NCBI RefSeq assembly: GCF_029892045.1
Contig: NZ_CP120369.1
Location: 558,001 to 622,000, forward strand
DNA length: 64,000 bases
Origin: Sinorhizobium numidicum
GTDB taxonomy: Bacteria; Pseudomonadota; Alphaproteobacteria; Rhizobiales; Rhizobiaceae
Direction of reading: 5' to 3'
A model generated the notes under the pieces. That model searched no databases. It saw only the letters and a list, made by a program, of their open reading frames with translations, and was not told where the DNA came from. The translations under genes and the position numbers were made by a program. Of the stretch, positions 13,977 through 24,874 are shown one piece after another (positions within the stretch are counted from its first letter, which is position 1; the number at the start of each line of letters is the position of its first letter).

Positions 13977-14147
13977 ATGACGAAGGCGATCTTACCAGCC
14001 CTGTCGGACCCGGAGAGCACCGCGGACGCAGCGATCGAACTGTTCGGCGACGAGGCAGCGACGGCCGTGGCACATTGCGGTCTTGACGCCTGGACGGACG
14101 GGCGAGCAGACGATTTCGCATTCTGGTCGACATTTTCCGTCGTCTAA
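13977..14147 (+). pseudogene. Small rhizobial protein, family member B, probable frameshift at its end
   Basis: The reading frame from ATG 13977 gives about 56 residues; GGGAGATAACG precedes it. The part AATAVAHCGLDAWTDGRADDFAFWS parallels the gene at 13096. It then stops abruptly as TFSVV. Shifting frame by one base at about 14128 gives IFRRLTGVPSPGASH up to a stop near 14183, which better fits the family's basic end. I read this as a one-base frameshift. Confidence 0.5.
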
Positions 14148-14475
14148 CCGGGGTGCCGTCACCCGGCGCCAGCCACTGAGCCGACAGTCGCGGGGTTTTT
14201 AGCTGCCGCCTCAGACCAACCGCACCTAGACGAGGAAAGCAAGGTAGAGAACTCAAACGCAGATTATGCCGACTGCACGGATCTGCAGTGTTATCGGAGA
14301 TGGCATAACGACCTTGACTTGTTACGCTACATGCAACATATAAAGGGCATAGTTTTCGAGGTGGGAACGGCTTCCCCACGCGCCACCGAGTGTGGTTAGT
14401 AGTCGAAAGACCAAGAGATGCGGACTTTAGCACCCGCCGAAAACGAATTCAAAAGCCTCGCGAAAGCGGGGCTTT
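14148..14475 (+). other. Gene-free stretch holding a candidate sRNA and terminator
   Basis: There is no protein-coding signal here. The right half contains a sigma-70-like promoter at 14314-14342 and an intrinsic terminator at 14454-14477, described separately. The left half (14190-14310) shows nothing specific. Confidence 0.5.
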
Positions 14476-14477
14476 TT
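14349..14477 (+). ncRNA. Candidate small RNA of about 130 nt
   Basis: A promoter with TTGACT at 14314-14319, exactly 17 bases of spacer and CATATA at 14337-14342 faces right. No open reading frame of any quality follows before an intrinsic terminator at 14454-14477. The predicted transcript contains an internal hairpin GTGGG...CCCAC around 14362-14381. This arrangement is what a free-standing bacterial sRNA gene looks like. I cannot assign it to a known rhizobial sRNA family by eye. Confidence 0.55.
14454..14477. terminator. Bidirectional intrinsic terminator
   Basis: The stem AGCCTCGC / GCGGGGCT with a GAAA loop is followed by TTTTTATTT on the plus strand and by TTTTG on the minus strand. 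It therefore can end both the candidate sRNA (plus) and the gene at 14476-14871 (minus), whose stop codon overlaps it. Confidence 0.8.
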
Positions 14478-14871
14478 ATTTGGCTAGAATGACGAATTTC
14501 TTTCGAATCCTGCGCTCGAGCTTATCGCGATTAATTGGATAAGCGGACTTCACGATATACGTGCCGTCCAGGCGGGGTTCGAGGTGCACGGCCACGAGCA
14601 CAATGGTGTTCCCGTCCACGTGTTCGTAGATCAATTCAAAGCCGAGATTTTTGTGTTCTGGCCCTTGCCCGACGTGGGTAGGCGATCCTACGGCGAGCGA
14701 GAGGTACGGGCGGCACATCTCAAACTCATGCGCGTGGCGAGAGATTGCATGTCTTTGCGCAGCGATTGAGAAGATAACGTCTCCGTCACCGACGGCGATG
14801 CCGGCTCGCTTCAGTGCATCAATAGGCAGTTTGCCGAGAACCAGCGGTTTCAGCTTATCTCTTTTCGCCAT
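14476..14871 (-). CDS. Unknown small protein next to the ATPase/nuclease pair
   Basis: About 131 residues from the ATG at 14871 (MAKRDKLKPLVL). There is no signal or membrane segment. The middle has AAQRHAISRHAHEFEMCRPYLSLAVG and a beta-rich end with GTYIVKSAYPI and a very basic tail (RDKLERRIRKKF). The HxxxRH pattern with a late Y-x-V-x-S strand recalls RelE/barnase-like small nucleases of mobile elements, but this is only a resemblance. It has lower GC than its surroundings, like the two large genes to its right. Confidence 0.6.
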   Translation of the reverse strand: MAKRDKLKPLVLGKLPIDALKRAGIAVGDGDVIFSIAAQRHAISRHAHEFEMCRPYLSLAVGSPTHVGQGPEHKNLGFELIYEHVDGNTIVLVAVHLEPRLDGTYIVKSAYPINRDKLERRIRKKFVILAK

Positions 14872-15095
14872 TTCGGATTGCCCCAATATGCAGCTTTAAT
14901 AGCCGCAGAGAAGCTTAGCGGCAAGGGGTGGGCATGCCCGGCGCGCGCTCACTATCGGGCTTCCAGCGCACCGATTTTAATAGGGAATTTGCCCAGTTGC
15001 ATCGAGCTGAATAGATCGGAAGCTACCGGCGATTGTAAGAGTTTACAGCCCCGATCTTAGTTGCCTATTCTGCCCGAAATGTATTGGGGGGAGGC

Positions 15096-17201
15096 ATGGC
15101 AAACTACACGGTTTCTGTTCTCAACTGTAATAGCATTGACCGCGCTGATGTGGTCATTTCGGAGGGGGCGCTAAACATCAAATATGGACCAAATGGACTT
15201 GGGAAAAGCACTATCGCGAAAGCTATCGTCAGTCATATTCGTGCTGATGGCTCGCTCCGGGAGCTAATCCCCTTCAAGAACCGCGGCAAAGCCGATGCCC
15301 CTGCCCCGGAGGTTCGGGGCGTAGATCAACTCCAGAAAGTCGTCGTTTTTGACGATAATTATGTGCAGCAGTTCGTCTTCCAGAAAGACGAGGTTGTAAA
15401 AAACAGTTTCGAGATTTTCATCAGAACACCGGAATATCTGGCGGAGATGGCGGAGATCGATACGCTGCTCTCGGGTGTCCGGAAAGCGTTTTCCGACAAT
15501 GCTGAGATCGGGCAGGTCATCACCGACCTGAAAGAGCTACGGGAGGCATTCGGCAAATCCAAGACAGGCGCCATTCCCAAGACGAGTAAGATCCACAAGG
15601 CATTCGGATCGGGCAACAAACTGGAAAACGTTCCCGAGGCCCTGCAGCCCTTTTCAACGTTCATTAAGAGCGCGGAACCCGCCAAATGGATCGCGTGGCA
15701 GGTGAAAGGCAACGAATTCCTGCAGTTGGGAGACAACTGCCCCTACTGTTCAACGGCGCTCACTGGCACAGGACAGAAGGACACAGCCTTGGCTGTCGAA
15801 AAGGAATATGACGCTAACACGGCTGGGCACATCAACACCCTTCGGGGGATCATCGACAGGCTGGGGAAGTATTTCAGCGAGAAATGCCGGGAGAACCTGG
15901 AAAAGGTGACGAAGGCAAAGGTTGATCTGCAGGCTGAGGAGCAAAGCTTCCTGACAGGCCTCAAGGCGGACATTGACGCATTGATCAACAAGCTGGAGGG
16001 GTTGCGAACTATGTCCTTCTTCTCGCTACGCGATTTCGAAGAAGTAGGCGACCAGCTGACGCCGTTGAAGATCGACCTCATCTTGATTGACAAACTGGAC
16101 TCCGCGGAGACGCGCAAGACCGTCGACCCGATTAATCAGCAGCTCGATGACTTGATTGGAAAGGTTGGCAGCCTCAAAGGCAAAATCAAGCGGCACAAGG
16201 CGAAGATAAAAAAAACGATCGAGGAAAACCAGGCCAGCATCAACGGTTTCCTGAGGTCCGCAGGCTACAAGTACGCCGTGGAGATCGTGGCTGAACCGGA
16301 ATCCTACAAAATGAAGCTGGTCCACAGGGATCAGGTGGATCACATCGAGACGGCCTCACTTCATCTTAGCTACGGCGAGAAGAACGCGTTTGCGCTGGTG
16401 TTGTTTATGTATCAGGTTCTCAGTGAAAAACCGGACTTGGTCGTCTTGGATGACCCGATCTCATCCTTCGACAAGAACAAGAAATTTGCAATTCTCCATG
16501 AGCTATTCCGGGGCAAGGCCAGTCTGCGCGGCAGAACAACGCTCATGCTCACCCACGATATCGAGCCCGCGATAGACGTCATAAAAAGCAACAATGCCGT
16601 GTTCCAAGGCGCCGCACCATCCGCTTGCTTCTTATCTTCACGGGCTGGGGTAGTGACGGAGGTCCCAATCGAGCGGAACGACATCCAGACCTTCGCTAGA
16701 ATCTGCAAAGACAATATCGGGGCTCTTAGCGACACCATCATAAAGGCAATCTACCTGCGGCGACACTTCGAGCTGCAGGATGACGCCGGCCTAGAATACA
16801 ACCTGCTTGCTAGCCTGTTCAAGGGACGGGACACACCGACGATTAAGTCGGGTTCTTCCAGCCGGGAGATGACGGCCGCCGAAAAGACGCGGGCGGAGAC
16901 ATCAATCCCTGAAAACCATATCCCCGGCTTTGACTACGTTGCCCTTGTGGCACAGGTAAAGGACGTGGAGGGCATCAAGGCCAGATTTCATGCCACGAAC
17001 GTGGGTTATGAAAAGATCCAGTTATTCCGGATCATCAACGATGAGCACGACGATAGCGTCATCCGCAAGTTCATAAACGAGTCCTACCACATCGAGAATG
17101 AATACGTGATGCAGCTCAATCCGCATAGATTCGAGAGTGTTCCAGAGTACGTTATCGAGGAGTGTGCCGCGCTGCTCTCGCCTGCTCCCGCCGCCGTGTA
17201 A
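15096..17201 (+). CDS. SMC/RecF-like AAA ATPase with CxxC hook, RloC/AAA_13-like
   Basis: A 701-residue ABC-class ATPase. Walker A is YGPNGLGKST (about residue 35). A long coiled-coil region is interrupted by CPYCST (about residue 225), which looks like a zinc hook. The C-terminal half has the ABC signature-like LSYGEKNAFALVL and Walker B LVVLDDPISSFDKNK with a following LTHDIEP His switch. A helical C-terminus contains FINESYHIENEYVMQLNP. GGGGGGAGG precedes ATG 15096. The layout resembles AAA_13/RloC/PrrC-type defence ATPases. I do not see a certain anticodon-nuclease triad. It is probably in one unit with the next gene. Confidence 0.8.
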   Translation: MANYTVSVLNCNSIDRADVVISEGALNIKYGPNGLGKSTIAKAIVSHIRADGSLRELIPFKNRGKADAPAPEVRGVDQLQKVVVFDDNYVQQFVFQKDEVVKNSFEIFIRTPEYLAEMAEIDTLLSGVRKAFSDNAEIGQVITDLKELREAFGKSKTGAIPKTSKIHKAFGSGNKLENVPEALQPFSTFIKSAEPAKWIAWQVKGNEFLQLGDNCPYCSTALTGTGQKDTALAVEKEYDANTAGHINTLRGIIDRLGKYFSEKCRENLEKVTKAKVDLQAEEQSFLTGLKADIDALINKLEGLRTMSFFSLRDFEEVGDQLTPLKIDLILIDKLDSAETRKTVDPINQQLDDLIGKVGSLKGKIKRHKAKIKKTIEENQASINGFLRSAGYKYAVEIVAEPESYKMKLVHRDQVDHIETASLHLSYGEKNAFALVLFMYQVLSEKPDLVVLDDPISSFDKNKKFAILHELFRGKASLRGRTTLMLTHDIEPAIDVIKSNNAVFQGAAPSACFLSSRAGVVTEVPIERNDIQTFARICKDNIGALSDTIIKAIYLRRHFELQDDAGLEYNLLASLFKGRDTPTIKSGSSSREMTAAEKTRAETSIPENHIPGFDYVALVAQVKDVEGIKARFHATNVGYEKIQLFRIINDEHDDSVIRKFINESYHIENEYVMQLNPHRFESVPEYVIEECAALLSPAPAAV

Positions 17202-17256
17202 GCATTCATGCCGCAGAAGTCCTGATTTCTTATGACATTGGCAGCGGGAGACTAAC

Positions 17257-19485
17257 GTGGCCGAAACGTACGATTTTCACACGCTGTCGCATCTCGACTT
17301 CGAAGAACTCGTGCGAGATCTTCTGCAGGCGGAGTGGAAGGTGAGTCTCGAAAGCTTCGGGCCAGGGCGCGACCAGGGCATCGACATTCGCTACCTCGAC
17401 GGCCCGCAGAAGGTTATCATCCAAGCCAAGCATCTGCTGGGTAGCGGCTATCGCGGACTTCTCCGGGCTGTCTCCGCCGAGAAGGCAAAGGCAATCAAGC
17501 TTGCGCCTACACGTTATATTCTCGCTACATCGGTTTCTTTGACGCACTCACGCAAGGATGAAATTGTTGCGGCGATGGAAGGCATGCCGCTGGCTCCCAA
17601 CGATGTATTGGGCCAGGAAGACCTGAACAATTTGATCCGGCAGCACCCGCAGATCGAGCGGCAGCACTTTAAGCTATGGCTGAGCAGCACGACAGTGCTC
17701 GATCGAATCCTGCACAGCGGCGTCTATAACCGTACGGCCGCTGAGATGGACATTATTCGGGAGATGGTGCCGCGATTCGTCCAAAATCGCAGCGTGGTGG
17801 ATGCGGAGCGGAAGCTCGCAGAAACGGGCGCACTTATCATCGCGGGACCGCCCGGCGTCGGTAAGACGACGCTCGCCAGAATATTGGTATGGCTGCATGC
17901 CGAGCAGGAATGGAATATCTTCGTCGTGGACACGCTCGAGGAAGCGTTCAAAGTCGCCGAGGCAGGCGAAAAGCGGCTCATTTTCCTCGACGATTTTCTC
18001 GGACAGGTCCGTTTGTCAGCTGATCACGTCCGTGGCGTCGATGCACGCTTACCACCGCTGATCAGTCGCGTTGCGGCGCATGAAAACCTCCGCTTCATCC
18101 TGACAACTCGTGACTATATCCTGGCACAGGCGCGCGGCCTTTCTGCGCGTCTCGCGCCAGGACAGATCAACGCACGGGAGTATGTTCTGAACGTAGGACA
18201 CTATACGCGTGCTGTGAGGGCACGGATCCTCTACAATCATCTCTATTTTTCCGCGCTCACGGCCATGCAGCGTGACGACGTCCTCAAAGATGATTTCTTC
18301 CTCAAGATCATTGATCACAAAAACTTCAACCCGCGGATTATCCAAGAGGTCACAAAACAGGAATACTTAGCACTCACGGAACGCCCAATCCGTGAGACGA
18401 TCACGACGGTCCTCGCCAACCCAGAAATACTCTGGGAGTTCCCCTATCGTCAGCACATTAGCGCTGAAGGGCGCATGATGATGTTGGCGCTTTTTCTGAA
18501 TGCCAGATCAACCAAGCCCGAGGGATTGAAGGCAAGCTATGTTCGGGTCGCGCGAGCGTTGGGTGTCGAGCTGCGTCCTGCCGAAATCGAGCCAAGTTTC
18601 CGATCGACATTCCGGGCATTGGAGGGATCCGTACTCGCCCTTATGCACGGGCTGGTAATGTTCGCAAACCCGGCCCTTAGAGATTTCGTTCAATCAGTCG
18701 TGGTCTCGGACAAACTGGTGCCCTGCCTGCTCCCGGAGATGGAAACCCCCTCGGAACTTCGCGAGCTCTTCGAGGTATTCACAGCGCAGCAGCCCAGCCG
18801 TGCGGACAAGTACCAGCTTGCGGAAGTCTGGACTGCAGCCCTAGACCGAATGCAGATGGGCGGTTTTTCTGATCGGTACGATTATATCGAACTGGCGTCC
18901 GATCTGTGCGCCGAGCTCGAGTATGAACCGCTGCAGGAGCGCCTTGGGCAGGCTTTGGAAGATTTTGAAACCCTGGCAATGGACGGGGACGAAGTCACTA
19001 AAGCATGCTCATTGCTTGAAAAGAGCTTCACATGCACCCTGCCTTGGGAACTAGAGCATCGATTTCGTAGCGTTACCACCAGAGCAGCGGCGCAACTCCT
19101 CATCGATTATGCAGACGAATTGAGCTTCGAAGACGTTCAGAGCCTGGACGACACACTTCACTCATACGGCAACGATGAGAAGCTAGCAATGGCGGCGAGC
19201 CATGCGGCTATAGGAAGCCTCGCCCGAAATATAGACCATGAAATTCGTGATATTGAGACTGTCGAAGAGCTTGATGAATATGAGGAAACGCTCATTAACT
19301 TCATGCAGAAGCGTCGTTTCCCAACAACAAGCGTGGCCTTCGATATCCAATATCGGCGCGAGCGCCTGATGGAAGAAGGGCGTACGAGTAGAAGAGAATC
19401 ATACCGCGGCGTTACCCCTGACCCCGAGAGAGGCGCATCCGACGGTGACATCATATCCATATTCCGAGCACTAAGCAGGGATTGA
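17257..19485 (+). CDS. Mrr-like nuclease fused to a STAND-type NTPase
   Basis: A 742-residue protein starting with GTG after GGGAGA. Residues 1-130 form a Mrr/restriction-endonuclease-like domain: FEELVRDLLQAEWKV, then GRDQGIDIRYLDG with the catalytic Asp and VIIQAKH as the QxK half of the PD-(D/E)xK motif. An NTPase follows with Walker A AGPPGVGKTTLA (about residue 195) and Walker B RLIFLDDF, fitting novel STAND (nSTAND3-like) or AAA ATPases. The rest (about 350-742) is helical and could sense a target. Nuclease-STAND fusions act in anti-phage defence by degrading DNA once triggered. It lies 56 bases after the hook ATPase. Confidence 0.82.
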   Translation: MAETYDFHTLSHLDFEELVRDLLQAEWKVSLESFGPGRDQGIDIRYLDGPQKVIIQAKHLLGSGYRGLLRAVSAEKAKAIKLAPTRYILATSVSLTHSRKDEIVAAMEGMPLAPNDVLGQEDLNNLIRQHPQIERQHFKLWLSSTTVLDRILHSGVYNRTAAEMDIIREMVPRFVQNRSVVDAERKLAETGALIIAGPPGVGKTTLARILVWLHAEQEWNIFVVDTLEEAFKVAEAGEKRLIFLDDFLGQVRLSADHVRGVDARLPPLISRVAAHENLRFILTTRDYILAQARGLSARLAPGQINAREYVLNVGHYTRAVRARILYNHLYFSALTAMQRDDVLKDDFFLKIIDHKNFNPRIIQEVTKQEYLALTERPIRETITTVLANPEILWEFPYRQHISAEGRMMMLALFLNARSTKPEGLKASYVRVARALGVELRPAEIEPSFRSTFRALEGSVLALMHGLVMFANPALRDFVQSVVVSDKLVPCLLPEMETPSELRELFEVFTAQQPSRADKYQLAEVWTAALDRMQMGGFSDRYDYIELASDLCAELEYEPLQERLGQALEDFETLAMDGDEVTKACSLLEKSFTCTLPWELEHRFRSVTTRAAAQLLIDYADELSFEDVQSLDDTLHSYGNDEKLAMAASHAAIGSLARNIDHEIRDIETVEELDEYEETLINFMQKRRFPTTSVAFDIQYRRERLMEEGRTSRRESYRGVTPDPERGASDGDIISIFRALSRD

Positions 19486-20139
19486 CTGGTAAGGGGCAGA
19501 ACAAGCTGCCCTTCAGGTTTTCGATCTGGTTGCGCTGGCGCCGAGCTGCGCCTTTGCGCCGTCGAGCGCGATCCGAAAGCTGTCAGACTTCAGGCTGAAA
19601 AGAACCTGACCGGCCGATCTGTCTGTTGGGAATCGGGACCTACATTGCGTTTGGTCCTCCTCGCCGCTGAAGGATGTAGCCGCCCGCCACGCGAGGTTTG
19701 TCGCGTCCGAACAGCCTGGCCGTATCGCTTCGCAATTCGCCGGGCCTCATATCTTTCCTGTATCGCACTCACTCGATCCATATATTGGACGCTCATCGGG
19801 TGGGCGACTATTTTGAATGCACACGAGCCCAACGTCGCGGACTGGTCAGAGTCTTTGCCAAAGAAAAGGAGGCAGCCTCATGAGCCGAGAACTCTTCCGC
19901 ATCTCTCAAGCCAACCTGTTCCCCCACGTGAGCACGTGGCCACGGTTTGCGGCCGCCACGCAAGCACGCTGAACGCCTTCCTAGAGCGGTTTGGTAGCCG
20001 CGGCTGAGACAGCCCAATTTTCGAAGTGTGGGCCAGGTGACATCGGAAACTGGCCTGAGAGCCGGCCTTACAAGCCGCATACTGAGCCGAGGTGAGTCAT
20101 AGACTCTTTTCTTAAGTCATCCAAAGAAGTGAGACTTCC
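19486..20139. other. Intergenic stretch between the ATPase/nuclease pair and fumC
   Basis: No full gene is supported. A minus-strand frame (about 19590-19832) and a plus-strand frame (19645-20007) overlap each other and neither shows a known family. A very short plus-strand frame with a good ribosome binding site is listed separately. The fumC promoter should lie between 20010 and 20130, with no clear boxes. Confidence 0.4.
19880..19972 (+). CDS. Possible 30-residue leader or truncated gene
   Basis: A strong AAAAGGAGGCAGCC site is followed by ATG at 19880 and a 30-codon frame (MSRELFRISQANLFPHVSTW...) ending at 19972. The spacing is good and the first codons are typical, but there is no homology clue. 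It may be the start of a gene whose remainder was lost. Confidence 0.25.
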   Translation: MSRELFRISQANLFPHVSTWPRFAAATQAR

Positions 20140-21747
20140 ATGAACAGCATCAGCAACAAGCAGCACGTGGAAAACCTAACCGGCGGCGCAAGCTTTCGCA
20201 GCGAGGCCGACGGCCTGGGCTCGGTCAACGTTCCCGCCGACAAGCTCTGGGGCGCCCAGACTCAGCGTTCGCTCAAGCATTTCAGCATAGGCCACGACCT
20301 GATCCCGCGGGAAATGATCACGTCCTATTCGATCTTGAAGCTGGCCGCTGCCACCGCGAGCTACGAAGGCGGTCGCCTCGAGGTCCACGCCTATGAACTG
20401 ATCACGCGTGTTTGCGAGGAAATCCTGGAGGGAAAGCTCCATGATATGTTCCCGCTGCACGTCTGGATGACTGGCAGCGGCCCCCAGTTCAACATGAACG
20501 TCAACGAAGTCATCTCCAACCGCTGTTGCCAGCTTATGAACACCCCGCTCGGCAGCAAGACACCGGTCCATCCGAACGACCACGCCAACATGTCTCAATC
20601 ATCCAACGACAGCTTCCCGTCGGCGATGAACATTGCCGCCGCCGCGGGAGTCGCGATCCGTTTGCTCCCGGCCGTGACCGCGCTTCGGGACGCCATCGCT
20701 GGCAAGGCCGAAGAATGGGCCGACATCGTCAAGATCGGCCGGACTCACATGCAGGACGCGACACCGCTGACGCTCGGCCAGGAATGGTCGGGCTATGCAG
20801 GCATGCTGTCCGACGATCTCGAGCGGATCGAGAACGCCCTCAAGGGCGTCTATCGGCTGGCCCTCGGTGGCACCGCTGTCGGTACTGGAATCAATGCCGC
20901 CCCAGGATTTGCGGAAGCCGTTGTGGCCGAAATTGCCAGGCTCACCGATCTGCCTTTTGTCAGTGCGCCGAACAAGTTCACGGTCCAGGGCGCCCATGAC
21001 GCGCTGGTTCATCTCTCCGGCACACTGCGCACCCTTGCTGTCTCACTCTATAAGATCGGCAACGATATCCGGCTGTTGTCGTGCGGCCCGCGCGCCGGTT
21101 TTGCGGAACTGCTGATCCCGGAAAACGAGCCGGGCTCGTCGATCATGCCCGGAAAAGTCAATCCGACGCAGGTCGAGGCGCTGACGATGATCGCTGTGCA
21201 GGTCATGGCGAACGACGTCGGCTTCGGCTTCGGCGGAGCCGGCGGTTATCTTGAAATGAATGTCTATAAGCCTCTGATGATTGCCAACATCGCGCAGTCG
21301 ATCACCATTCTCGCAGACGGATGCACAAACTTCCGCGTCTTCCTGGTCGAGGGCACGCAACCCAACCGGAAGAAGATCGCGGAATATGTGGAGCGTTCGT
21401 TGATGCTGGTCACGGCGCTCACGCCGGTGATCGGCTATGATAAGGCTTCGAAAATCGCTCATCATGCTGCTGACCACGATCTGACACTGAAACAGCCCGC
21501 GCTTGAGCTCGGCTTCGTCGACGAGCAGACCTTCGATCACGTCGTCGATCCGGCCAAGATGGTGAAACCCTACGTCGCCTCCACCTGGCTGTGGGCGACC
21601 AGATCCCGCACTACCGTCCCAGGCTGGCGAGTTCCCCTGTCGCTTTGGTCGCGATCGGCGAACCCCCGCCGACGGACCTGCTCCCGCTGGTATGGCACCC
21701 TCGAACTGCCGCAGCCATCCACCACCAATCAGATTGAACATCAATAG
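20140..21747 (+). CDS. fumC: Fumarate hydratase class II with an abnormal C-terminal extension
   Basis: Catalyses fumarate + water to malate. The protein has the fumarase/aspartase superfamily hallmarks: [35 protein letters not shown] and the signature [13 protein letters not shown] with the catalytic Ser. Aspartase is the main alternative, since both share these signatures. The catalytic part ends normally near KPYVA (about residue 480). The frame then runs on for about 55 residues of low-complexity Arg/Ser/Trp sequence to 21747, giving 535 residues instead of about 470. The normal stop seems lost where foreign sequence joins. A good AAGTGAGAC site precedes the ATG. It sits directly before the malic enzyme gene, which consumes its product. 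Confidence 0.88.
21582..21737 (+). pseudogene. Possible LysR-family C-terminal fragment fused behind fumC
   Basis: In the frame one base off fumC, positions 21582-21737 read [18 protein letters not shown] and then [24 protein letters not shown] before a stop. The LVWHPRT ending resembles the last strand of LysR-type effector domains (usually followed by DPAHRWLR). If so, a deletion joined the end of fumC to the tail of a regulator gene. The evidence is a short resemblance only. Confidence 0.35.
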
Positions 21748-21760
21748 GAAGGAAAGCCAC

Positions 21761-23386
21761 ATGTCCACTCACATCCCGACCGGCCATGCGCTGTTGCGTG
21801 ACTCTCGGCTGAACAAGGGCACTGCATTCACCGTCTCCGAACGCCGCGAATTTGCCCTCGAGGGCCTGCTGCCACCGGTGCCGCTTTCTCTCGAGTTGCA
21901 GGTGGCGCGTCTAAACAACGAACTCGCTGAGCTCGACAGCGACCTGCAACGCTACCTGCTGCTGTCCGACCTGCAGGTGCGCAACCAAACGCTGTTCTAT
22001 GCCCTGCTGATGTCGGATCCGGCCCGCTTCATGCCGATCGTGTACACGCCGACGGTCGGCGAAGCCTGCCAGAAATTCGACCAGATCTACCGCAATCCGC
22101 ACGGCATGTACCTGCCAATTAGCGCACGCGGGCGGCTGCGCGAACTGCTTGCCAACTGGCCGCAAAAGGACGTGCGGTTCATCGTCGTCACCGACGGCGA
22201 GCGCATCCTTGGCTTGGGCGACCTCGGGCTTGGCGGCATGGGCATTCCGGTTGGCAAGCTTGCCCTCTACACCGCCTGCGCTGGCGTGCCGCCGCAGTAT
22301 TGCCTGCCGGTGACCCTCGACGTCGGGACCAACAATCACCAACTCCTCGAAGACCCGCTTTATCTCGGCCTGCGCCAGGAGCGCGTGCGCGGCGAGGCAT
22401 ACACGGCCTTCATCGATGAGTTCGTCGAGGCCGTTCAGGCGCTCTACCCGAAGTGCTGCATCCAGTGGGAAGACTTCGCGAACTTCAACGCCGTGCCGAT
22501 CCTCGCCAATCACCGCGACAAGATCTGCACCTTCAACGACGACATCCAGGGCACGGCGGCGGTTGCATTGGCCGGCATCTACGGCGCATTGCGCATCTCC
22601 GGGCAGCGGCTTGCCGACCAGCGTTTCCTGTTTCTCGGCGGCGGGTCGGCGGCGACCGGCATTGCCGGACTGATCAGCCGGGCGATGACGCTCGAGGGCA
22701 CGAGCATGGCCGAGGCCCGCGCCCGCACTGCGCTGTTCGACGTCAACGGTCTGCTGGTGGCTTCGCGCACCGATCTTCAGGAATTCCAGAAGCCCTTTGC
22801 CCTCAAGCGTGCGCAAATCACAAGCTTCGTGGAGGCGGTGAAGACGCTCCGGCCGACGGCGATCATCGGCGTCAGCACCATCCCGAAACTGTTCAATCAG
22901 CAGGTGATCGAAGCCATGGCGGAAATCAACGACCGGCCGATCATCTTCCCGTATTCCAACCCGACCTCGCGGTCCGAATGCACAGCCGAGGAGGCCTATC
23001 AATGGTCGCAGGGCCGGGCGATCTTCGCCAGTGGCAGCCCGTTTTCCCCGCTCGAGGTGAATGGCAAGACCTTCGTGCCGGGCCAGGGCAACAACGTCTA
23101 CATCTTCCCACCCATGGGCATGGCTGTGTTTGCGACCGAGGCCGAGCGGATAACCGACGACATGTTCATCGTCGCCGCCAAAGCCGTCGCCGAACAGGTG
23201 ACGGAGGAAAACCTTGCTACCGGCCTGATTTATCCGCCGCAGAGAAAGATCCTCGCCACCTCGCTCCATGTCGCGACCCGCATCGCGGAGTGCATCTTTG
23301 ATAAGAGCCTGGCGGGGGTCGAACGTCCCAAGGACATTGCGGCACTCATTCAGGCGCGCCTCTACACCCCCAGTTATTCGGTCTGA
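21761..23386 (+). CDS. maeA: NAD-dependent malic enzyme
   Basis: A 541-residue malic enzyme of the SfcA/MaeA type (oxaloacetate-decarboxylating, malate to pyruvate + CO2 + NADH). Visible features: IVYTPTVGEACQKF near the N-terminus, the metal/catalytic segment WEDFANFNAVPIL and FNDDIQGTAAVALAGIYGAL, and the nucleotide-binding GGGSAATGIAGLI. Length matches the large bacterial/eukaryotic-like form rather than the MaeB-PTA fusion typical of rhizobial chromosomes. AGGAAGGAAAG precedes ATG 21761. A decayed second copy lies at 27640-28062. Confidence 0.93.
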   Translation: MSTHIPTGHALLRDSRLNKGTAFTVSERREFALEGLLPPVPLSLELQVARLNNELAELDSDLQRYLLLSDLQVRNQTLFYALLMSDPARFMPIVYTPTVGEACQKFDQIYRNPHGMYLPISARGRLRELLANWPQKDVRFIVVTDGERILGLGDLGLGGMGIPVGKLALYTACAGVPPQYCLPVTLDVGTNNHQLLEDPLYLGLRQERVRGEAYTAFIDEFVEAVQALYPKCCIQWEDFANFNAVPILANHRDKICTFNDDIQGTAAVALAGIYGALRISGQRLADQRFLFLGGGSAATGIAGLISRAMTLEGTSMAEARARTALFDVNGLLVASRTDLQEFQKPFALKRAQITSFVEAVKTLRPTAIIGVSTIPKLFNQQVIEAMAEINDRPIIFPYSNPTSRSECTAEEAYQWSQGRAIFASGSPFSPLEVNGKTFVPGQGNNVYIFPPMGMAVFATEAERITDDMFIVAAKAVAEQVTEENLATGLIYPPQRKILATSLHVATRIAECIFDKSLAGVERPKDIAALIQARLYTPSYSV

Positions 23387-23534
23387 GGCGGGATTGTGAT
23401 GACCGTCGAGGTCATGGGACGCGGGCGGGCATCGGCTGTCGAGCCGACGCTTTGCCTGGTTGCGTCTGCAATTTAAATCCACGGGCGTGCGATCGTTGGC
23501 CGCCTCCGTCACAGCATTTGCGAAAAGGTGACCC

Positions 23535-24874
23535 ATGAACGCCATATTGGCAGATCCCACGAACAAACTTGCTGGCGCAGACGCGATTCAAACGGAGCAA
23601 ACGAGAGCGCAGAAGCGTATCGTGATTATTGGAGGTGGTTTCGCGGGGATCGCCGCGGCGCGCGCTTCAGAGCGCGCCGATGCCGAGGTCGTGCTGATCG
23701 ACCGGCGCAATCACCACATCTTTCAGCCGCTGCTCTATCAAGCGGCCACCGCGGTGCTTGCACCCTCGGAAATCGCCGCGCCGATCCGGCCGCTCGCCGT
23801 CAAGCAGAGAAATCTGACCGTGATGCTCGCGGAAGTGACCGGAGTTGACCTGAGTTCGCGAACGATCGATGCCAGCTGCCCTGGCCTCGGCGCTCGCAAG
23901 GTCCCGTTCGACCATCTAAGTGTCGCTACCGGGATGCCCCCGAGCTATTTCGGCCATGACGAGTTTGCTCGGTATGCGCCAGCTCTCAAGAGCCTGAATG
24001 ATGCAGAGGCGATCCGAACAAAAATCCTTAGCGCCTTTGAACTCGCCGAGACTACCGATGATGCAAGCGAGCGCGCACGCCAGATGACCTTCGTCTTGGT
24101 CGGCGCCGGTCCTGGAGTTGGCGGCATCGATGGCGCGCATGGCTGCCGTTACGCTGCGTAATAATTTCCGCCGTATTGATCCGGCGGACAGCACCATCAT
24201 TCTACTTGAAGGCGGCAACCGGGTGCTTCCGACCTTCGCCGAGACCTTGTCGAGGAAGACAACCGCACGGCTCGAAAAGCTCGGCGTCAAGGTTATGACG
24301 GGAGTCAAGGTCGAAAAGGTCGATGAGCAAGGATGAGCAAGGCGTGGTCGCCGGCGGCAAACGGATCCCGAGCGCGACCGTCCTATGGACCGCCGGGGTA
24401 GCTGCATCGCCGATCGTGAAAATGTTCGGCGCAGACACCGATCGAGCCGGTCGCGTCATCGTTGGTCCGTGTCTGGATGTCCCGGGTGTGCCGGATGTCT
24501 TCTTCGTGGGAGATACGGCATCCGTCGTGCAGAACGGACGGCCGGAGCCTGGCGTCGCCCAGGCAGCGATCCAGCAAGGACGTTACGTGGGGCGGTTGAT
24601 CTGCGCCCGGCTTGAAGGGCGAGAGCCGAAGCGTCCGTTCCGATATTCCAACAAGGGCAATATGGCCGTCGTGGGCAGGAATTTTGCGATCCTCGAGGCC
24701 GGTCCTTTTCGCATGAGTGGATTCCTGACGTGGCTGATATGGGCATTCATTCACGTGGCCTCGCTTCCCCAGCTGCAGAATCGACTGCGGGTCGAATTCC
24801 AATGGCTCTGGTCCTACTTCACCGGTCAACGCAGTTCGCGCCTGATTTCCGAGCCGCCGAGGACAGTGGACTAG
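23535..24874 (+). pseudogene. ndh: Type II NADH dehydrogenase, broken by two frameshifts
   Basis: The gene would encode an NDH-2 flavoprotein that passes NADH electrons to quinone without proton pumping. Frame 1 (from ATG 23535) has the FAD motif IVIIGGGFAGIAAAR and NHHIFQPLLYQAATAVL. Near 24116 the second dinucleotide motif is damaged (GAGPGVGG for the family GAGPTGVELA) and the frame shifts. Frame 2 covers about 24118-24336 (SMARMAAVTLR...). A perfect 10-bp tandem duplication at 24322-24341 shifts the frame again. Frame 3 runs to 24874 with DVFFVGDTA and the C-terminal membrane-binding part. No single product can be made. Confidence 0.88.

What the first reader, a model, noticed from the sequence alone, without database searches (positions are those of the whole stretch)
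15096..19485. Two-gene candidate anti-phage system: hook ATPase plus Mrr-STAND nuclease
A RecF/SMC-like ATPase with a CPYC hook and long coiled coil is followed, 56 bases later, by a protein that joins a Mrr-type PD-(D/E)xK nuclease to a STAND-like NTPase and a helical sensor region. Each half resembles known defence parts (RloC/AAA_13; nuclease-STAND), but I do not know this pairing as a described system. The block has lower GC than its flanks and sits in an accessory region.
Basis: partly seen in the sequence, partly recalled or inferred. Interest (0 to 1): 0.72.

Follow-up and report, generated by a model that had tools for sequence, protein, structure and literature searches.

The report
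Two neighbouring candidate phage-defence genes
Two genes side by side on a soil-bacterium plasmid look like anti-phage weapons, one a DNA-repair-like ATPase with a possible toxin end and one a DNA-cutting alarm protein; relatives of each mostly live without the other, though the two kinds end up as neighbours more often than a comparison gene family did.

Summary
On a Sinorhizobium numidicum plasmid, an AAA_13 ATPase with a Rad50/SMC-like head and a conserved CPYC hook (15096-17201) is followed after 55 bases by a Mrr-type nuclease + nSTAND3 NTPase + helical region, 'NST' (17257-19485). Each matches a single-gene PADLOC phage-defence candidate: PDC-S06 (981 bits) and PDC-S73 (458 bits). 'Two-gene system' is only partly supported. 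None of 26 loci (about 20 distinct) carrying relatives of this ATPase, one 87% identical, holds an NST match. From the other side, 5 of 36 NST loci have a PDC-S06/RloC-type gene near NST (4 intact and 4-573 bases away, this window included; 1 broken), against 0 of 40 OLD-family control loci (Fisher p 0.02; 0.04 without this window; post hoc). LmuB-type genes adjoin NST twice. Best reading: a mini defence island of two separately mobile genes with an optional, exchangeable partnership. The ATPase is RloC-like in layout but fails RloC's triad spacing; NST is laid out like a compact Avs4. A DNA-cutter feeding a break-triggered RNase is the bold reading, not excluded. Contexts of NST's closest relatives (43-73% identical) could not be read.

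The parts
15096..17201 (+). AAA_13 / PDC-S06 ATPase, 701 aa
   Evidence: AAA_13 66 bits; PDLC04889 981 bits; annotated AAA family ATPase WP_280736502.1
15186..15212 (+). Walker A GPNGLGKST of the ATPase
15738..15749 (+). CPYC hook; both cysteines invariant
   Evidence: 27 of 27 and 15 of 15 aligned sequences
16365..16457 (+). ABC signature LSYGE to Walker B VVLDDP
16758..16772 (+). R555-x3-E559 in the C-terminal domain (candidate nuclease residues)
   Evidence: invariant in 27 of 27 and 15 of 15; function inferred
17076..17102 (+). NESYHIENE with invariant H665 (candidate catalytic His)
   Evidence: N661, E662, H665 invariant in 27 of 27 and 15 of 15; function inferred
17202..17256 (+). 55-base gap; purine-rich stretch before the GTG of the second gene; no + strand terminator-like site listed here
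17257..19485 (+). NST: Mrr-type nuclease + nSTAND3 + helical region, PDC-S73, 742 aa
   Evidence: PDLC05079 458 bits; annotated ATP-binding protein WP_280736501.1
17365..17433 (+). PD-(D/E)xK active-site region: GRDQGID (37-43) and QAKH (56-59)
   Evidence: D39, D43, Q56, K58 invariant in 35 of 35; Mrr_cat
17776..18249 (+). nSTAND3 NTPase (residues 174-331; Walker A 197, Walker B LDDFLG 244)
   Evidence: 134.8 bits
18718..19374 (+). all-helical C-terminal region (residues 488-706), putative sensor
   Evidence: model md4c4299a0e71, pLDDT mostly above 85 there; sensing is inferred
19504..19504 (.). edge of DNA shared (99.6%) with a S. garamanticum plasmid whose stretch lacks both genes

Best explanation
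A two-gene mini defence island on a conjugative plasmid, made of two separately mobile anti-phage genes whose partnership is optional and exchangeable. Gene 1: a Rad50-head ATPase with a CxxC hook holds a C-terminal effector domain in check; DNA damage or DNA ends made by a phage probably relieve it, and the effector, probably an RNase of the RloC/PrrC kind acting through R555, E559 and H665, stops growth (all inferred). Gene 2: a compact Avs4-like receptor; the helical C-terminus senses a phage component, nSTAND3 binds ATP and oligomerises, and the Mrr-type PD-(D/E)xK domain cuts DNA (inferred from architecture). Shown: the domains, conserved active-site residues, family matches, separate occurrence in the loci read, and recurrent neighbourhood with the same broad ATPase family. 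Not shown: defence, sensing, cleavage, or any contact between the two.
Against: Same strand, a 55-base gap and no + strand terminator-like site between them fit one operon. In Limnohabitans (L021) an RloC gene ends 4 bases before an NST gene starts. PDC-S06-type neighbours are enriched over the OLD control. Contexts of the closest NST relatives (43-73% identity) were not readable, so the pairing may be conserved in that subgroup; several ATPase loci are cut close to the gene.
Confidence: 0.65

Rival explanations
1. A true two-component system: NST senses the phage and cuts DNA; the resulting ends switch on the Rad50-headed ATPase, whose C-terminal RNase then stops translation, as PrrC is tied to a restriction enzyme.
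For: Tight same-strand layout here and in L021 (4 bases); PDC-S06-type genes near NST also in L095 (573 bases upstream) and L117 (109 bases downstream); enrichment over control, p 0.02, 0.04 without the window. RloC is switched on by double-strand-break inducers and by linear, not circular, DNA (PMC3874168, passages); PrrC is silenced by a linked R-M enzyme (PMC2610378, passages).
Against: Not co-conserved in what was read: 0 of 26 ATPase loci hold an NST match; 31 of 36 NST loci lack a PDC-S06-type gene; order, gap and ATPase subfamily vary. [quoted passage not shown] The three top-120 protein lists share no contig length, a weak test without a working positive control.
Confidence: 0.22
2. 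Chance adjacency in a plasmid region that gathers accessory genes; the enrichment reflects general defence-island clustering.
For: Other neighbours of NST are also defence-gene types (LmuB, Ppl, GajA); the control differs in taxa and replicons; p values are post hoc, and 0.097 if only the three intact outside cases count.
Against: 0 of 40 loci of the OLD-TOPRIM family, which includes defence genes such as GajA (L116), have such a neighbour, also with models that left out the window and L021.
Confidence: 0.1
3. A Lamassu variant: the ATPase is LmuB and NST is the LmuA effector.
For: The ATPase hits LmuB weakly (45 bits); LmuB-type genes lie directly upstream of NST in L118 and L026.
Against: The ATPase scores 981 bits to PDC-S06 against 45 to LmuB; NST hits no LmuA model up to E 1. 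No neighbour is annotated as LmuC; the small hypothetical neighbours were not profile-searched.
Confidence: 0.03

Closest known systems
RloC (wobble-nucleotide-excising anticodon nuclease; PDC-S06-type in PADLOC)
   Same: Rad50-like ABC head, CxxC hook, C-terminal domain with R-x3-E and an invariant His; the window ATPase and the RloC of L021 both match PDC-S06 models
   Different: the His is 105 residues after E559, not 36-52 (PMC2610378, passages); C-terminal profiles do not align with RloC
Avs4 / AVAST (nuclease-STAND-sensor; Avs5 for the nSTAND3 domain)
   Same: N-terminal nuclease, STAND NTPase, helical C-terminus; Avs4 aligns over residues 2-703; Avs5 also has nSTAND3 (PMC12931631, passages)
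   Different: half the length of the Avs4 chain (742 against 1534 residues); no Avs model among the PADLOC hits
PrrC-EcoprrI
   Same: an ABC-ATPase RNase encoded with a DNA nuclease
   Different: the nuclease here is not a type I R-M enzyme, and the linkage is optional; RNase activity here is inferred
Lamassu (LmuB)
   Same: SMC-like hook ATPase next to a nuclease gene
   Different: LmuB only 45 bits; no LmuA model hit, no annotated LmuC
REase-TIR proteins that PADLOC lists as Aga models (Argonaute-associated, a meaning I recall)
   Same: share the N-terminal nuclease stretch, residues 4-180
   Different: TIR in place of nSTAND3

Membership tests
PDC-S06 (PADLOC single-gene candidate) | full-length match to a family model | tested here: met
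   PDLC04889, 981 bits, residues 9-699
PDC-S73 (PADLOC single-gene candidate) | match to the family model | tested here: met
   PDLC05079, 458 bits, residues 4-678
RloC | ABC/Rad50-like ATPase head | tested here: met
RloC | CxxC zinc-hook motif | tested here: met
   CPYC, cysteines 27 of 27 and 15 of 15
RloC | antiparallel coiled coil carrying the hook | tested here: inconclusive
   helices on both sides, but pLDDT under 50 near the hook
RloC | catalytic triad R-x3-E-x36-52-H | tested here: not met
   R555-x3-E559 invariant, but the only window His in range (608) is kept in 14 of 27 and 4 of 15; invariant H665 is at x105
RloC | C-terminal domain homologous to RloC's | tested here: inconclusive
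   hhalign matches only the ATPase head; C-terminal pieces give E 0.13, probability 0.4%; no Pfam hit
RloC | anticodon nuclease activity | not testable with these tools
   needs a tRNA cleavage assay
Avs / AVAST | nuclease - STAND - C-terminal sensor layout | tested here: met
Avs / AVAST | match to an Avs family model | tested here: inconclusive
   none among the 8 PADLOC hits up to E 1; whether this copy holds Avs4 models was not checked
Avs / AVAST | activation by a phage protein | not testable with these tools
   needs infection or pull-down experiments
Lamassu | LmuB as best family | tested here: not met
   45 bits against 981 for PDC-S06
A two-gene system of this pair | the two genes are conserved together | tested here: not met
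   0 of 26 ATPase loci; 5 of 36 NST loci; close NST relatives (43-73%) not tested

The most novel reading that the evidence does not exclude
Mrr-nSTAND3 receptors are a recurrently acquired trigger for Rad50-headed tRNases: the receptor senses a phage protein and cuts DNA, and the ends switch on the neighbouring RloC-type RNase, so one operon couples DNA restriction to translation shut-off. This would be a PrrC-EcoprrI-like logic built from unrelated parts, assembled several times with different RloC-type ATPases, much as nuclease-protease pairs were added to unrelated systems (PMC12799240, passages).
Probability: 0.2. Interest if true: 0.68.

Novelty: new member of a known kind. Interest (0 to 1): 0.42.

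Why it matters
If the genes act alone, this adds a well-anchored example of two poorly known PADLOC candidates; relatives of the ATPase are common on enterobacterial plasmids (tblastn matches in 905 plasmid records, 566 of them Escherichia). If they act together, it would explain what tells an RloC-like RNase to fire, and give a second, independent case of DNA restriction coupled to translation arrest.

Tried and rejected
RloC membership of the window ATPase: rejected on triad spacing, while 'RloC-like in layout' stays. Lamassu: rejected.

Contig-length matching of the best-120 protein lists (lists compared: 120, 119 and 120 lengths out of 2273, 3186 and 1152 proteins found) showed no shared contig. 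The window pair itself is not visible in those lists, so the test has no positive control and I give it little weight.

Wider surveys were thin, the window's own genome counted each time: ATPase profile 2 of 297 family genomes and 1 of 385 class genomes; NST 8 of 60 relatives with the single protein, and with the profile 11 of 297, 9 of 397 and 2 of 385, several of these only the N-terminal nuclease stretch. AAA_13 over its cut-off in 4 of 22 genomes with a full or N-terminal NST match: the window, G981 (near NST), and partial matches elsewhere in G328 and G019.

A repeat search over 14000-20200 gave only short, imperfect pairs and no clear flanking repeat. No HEPN structure appears among the listed structural matches of the ATPase; its C-terminal domain was barely tested.

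Rows dropped before counts: of the first 21 plasmid records of the NST search I read the context of 14; of the 7 left out, 2 have the same score as a record that I read. Of 49 OLD-family places, 40 were fetched as controls. NST loci left out of the 36: N-terminal-only matches (REase-TIR types), weak P-loop matches and repeats of the same place. Seven of the 36 fall into three related groups at over 75% identity (L024/L080/L089, L090/L096, L087/L113); none of these is among the five positives. Among the 26 ATPase loci six pairs are over 90% identical for 1.5 kb or more, so about 20 are distinct; L062 ends right after the ATPase gene, and L047 and L071 hold incomplete copies. The positives were partly known before the profile test; one search repeats it with models lacking the window and L021, finds the same five, a further weak SMC-like match in L084 (opposite strand, E 1.5e-4), and still none in the controls.
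Full report
Where it is. The window lies on the 629-kb conjugative plasmid NZ_CP120372.1 of Sinorhizobium numidicum LMG 27395. The pair sits between small hypothetical genes behind a MucR regulator gene and fumarase/malic enzyme genes. A S. garamanticum plasmid is 99.6% identical over window 19504-23400 (the end of that query), starting 19 bases after the second gene stops; tblastn of both proteins finds nothing in the 22 kb around that place. The site is strain-variable.

Is it RloC? Davidov and Kaufmann describe RloC by an ABC head, a CxxC hook in a coiled coil and a triad R-x3-E-x36-52-H (PMC2610378, passages). Head and hook are met. R555-x3-E559 is met, but the only window His in the allowed range, 608, is kept in 14 of 27 and 4 of 15 sequences, and the invariant His, 665, lies 105 residues on. 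Profile comparison with the RloC of L021 and its relatives (A3, 20 sequences; R664-x3-E668-x40-H709 invariant; JGI names some relatives wobble nucleotide-excising tRNase) aligns the ATPase head only; the C-terminal pieces do not align. So I do not file it as RloC. It is RloC-like in layout, and an RNase end using R555, E559 and H665 is an inference. PrrC and RloC RNase domains are classed as HEPN domains (PMC3710099, passages); HEPN was not shown here.

Are they a pair, seen from the ATPase? Plasmid relatives at 87% (Pseudomonas pXWY), 71% (Bradyrhizobium, Variovorax; one further Bradyrhizobium copy is incomplete), 57% (Komagataeibacter) and 41-44% (Klebsiella, E. coli, Aliarcobacter, Methylotuvimicrobium) sit alone or beside restriction-modification, repair-type and unrelated genes. 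Some viral-contig relatives lie beside frames that I recognise, from memory, as phage tail genes. Of 26 loci with ATPase relatives (L041-L050, L061-L076; about 20 distinct), none holds an NST match at E <= 1e-5; the same holds for 3 loci of relatives of the L021 RloC (L109-L111). Some loci are cut close to the gene. At megablast sensitivity, DNA shared with pXWY is the ATPase gene alone (window 15087-17193, 83.5%).

Seen from NST. I collected 36 NST loci (identity to the window's NST 30-42%, the window apart). A PDC-S06/RloC-type gene lies near NST in five: the window (upstream, 55 bases, PDLC04889); Limnohabitans L021 (RloC, upstream, 4 bases, best model PDLC04887); L095 (RloC-type with R-x3-E and ESH by eye, 573 bases upstream, PDLC04894); Phaeobacter L117 (PDLC04891, 553 bits, 109 bases downstream); and L085, where a broken RloC-like gene starts about 800 bases downstream of a shortened NST, with a small hypothetical gene between. 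The four intact ones have different best models, though L021 and L095 are related. The first count for L095 gave a gap of 3 because an open frame ran upstream of the likely start; correct it. In 40 control loci around OLD-TOPRIM genes from Rhizobiaceae-family genomes the count is 0 (mean locus length 11.9 kb against 14.3 kb). Models built without the window and L021, at a looser limit, find the same five, one further weak SMC-like match (L084) and no control. Fisher one-sided p is 0.020, 0.043 without the window, and 0.097 if only the three intact outside cases of 35 count. The controls come from other genomes and the test is post hoc.

NST has other defence-type neighbours: LmuB-type ATPases directly upstream in R. 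ruizarguesonis L118 (18 bases by annotation) and Mesorhizobium L026 (111-117 bases); Ppl 32 bases downstream in A. fabrum L115; GajA divergent in L116; an AriA/OLD-like ATPase about 520 bases upstream in L022; a Fic gene 3 bases upstream in L083. The rest of the 36 show no such neighbour that I classified. So NST is a gene that repeatedly lands beside SMC/ABC-type defence ATPases.

Mechanism. RloC is activated by double-strand-break inducers and by linear, not circular, DNA (PMC3874168, passages), and PrrC is silenced by a linked restriction enzyme (PMC2610378, passages). A sensor-nuclease that makes DNA ends next to a Rad50-headed RNase would make sense as a cascade. Against it, RloC in A. 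baylyi needs no R-M protein for silencing or activation (same passages of PMC3874168). The data allow the cascade but do not need it; two independent defences sharing a site explain the solo copies, the differing partners and the discordant relatedness (nearest relatives 92% against 73%).

Verdict. Observation confirmed; interpretation partly supported. Both families are known as candidates; the pairing was not seen in the listings of the paper searches. The main gap is that contexts of the close NST relatives (43-73%) could not be read.

Noticed in passing
L118:1943-6277 and L026:5820-10337: LmuB-type (Lamassu SMC) genes lie directly upstream of Mrr-nSTAND3 genes in R. ruizarguesonis and Mesorhizobium, so the receptor may also serve as a Lamassu add-on.
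   Followed up: partly
L083:4480-8268: A Fic-family gene ends 3 bases before an Mrr-nSTAND3 gene on a Sphingorhabdus plasmid; the HEPN survey (PMC3710099, passages) notes Fic/Doc-like genes near RloC-like genes.
   Followed up: no
window 17266-17796 (NST residues 4-180): The nuclease stretch recurs N-terminally in TIR proteins that PADLOC lists as Aga models; of 11 genomes in 297 that hit the NST profile, 4 hit only in this stretch.
   Followed up: partly
window 20140-21747: The fumarase frame (535 aa) is longer than the 482-aa S. garamanticum counterpart and overlaps the malic enzyme frame; its tail looks out of frame.
   Followed up: no
window 23535-24874: A FAD-dependent oxidoreductase appears split into two frames; in S. 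garamanticum it is also annotated as two overlapping pieces.
   Followed up: no
L085:6028-10837: A shortened Mrr-nSTAND3 gene and a broken RloC-like gene lie close together on a Neorhizobium plasmid.
   Followed up: no
plasmids collection: The ATPase matches 905 plasmid records by tblastn, 566 of them from Escherichia; in the PADLOC library the window's protein is named only as candidate PDC-S06.
   Followed up: partly
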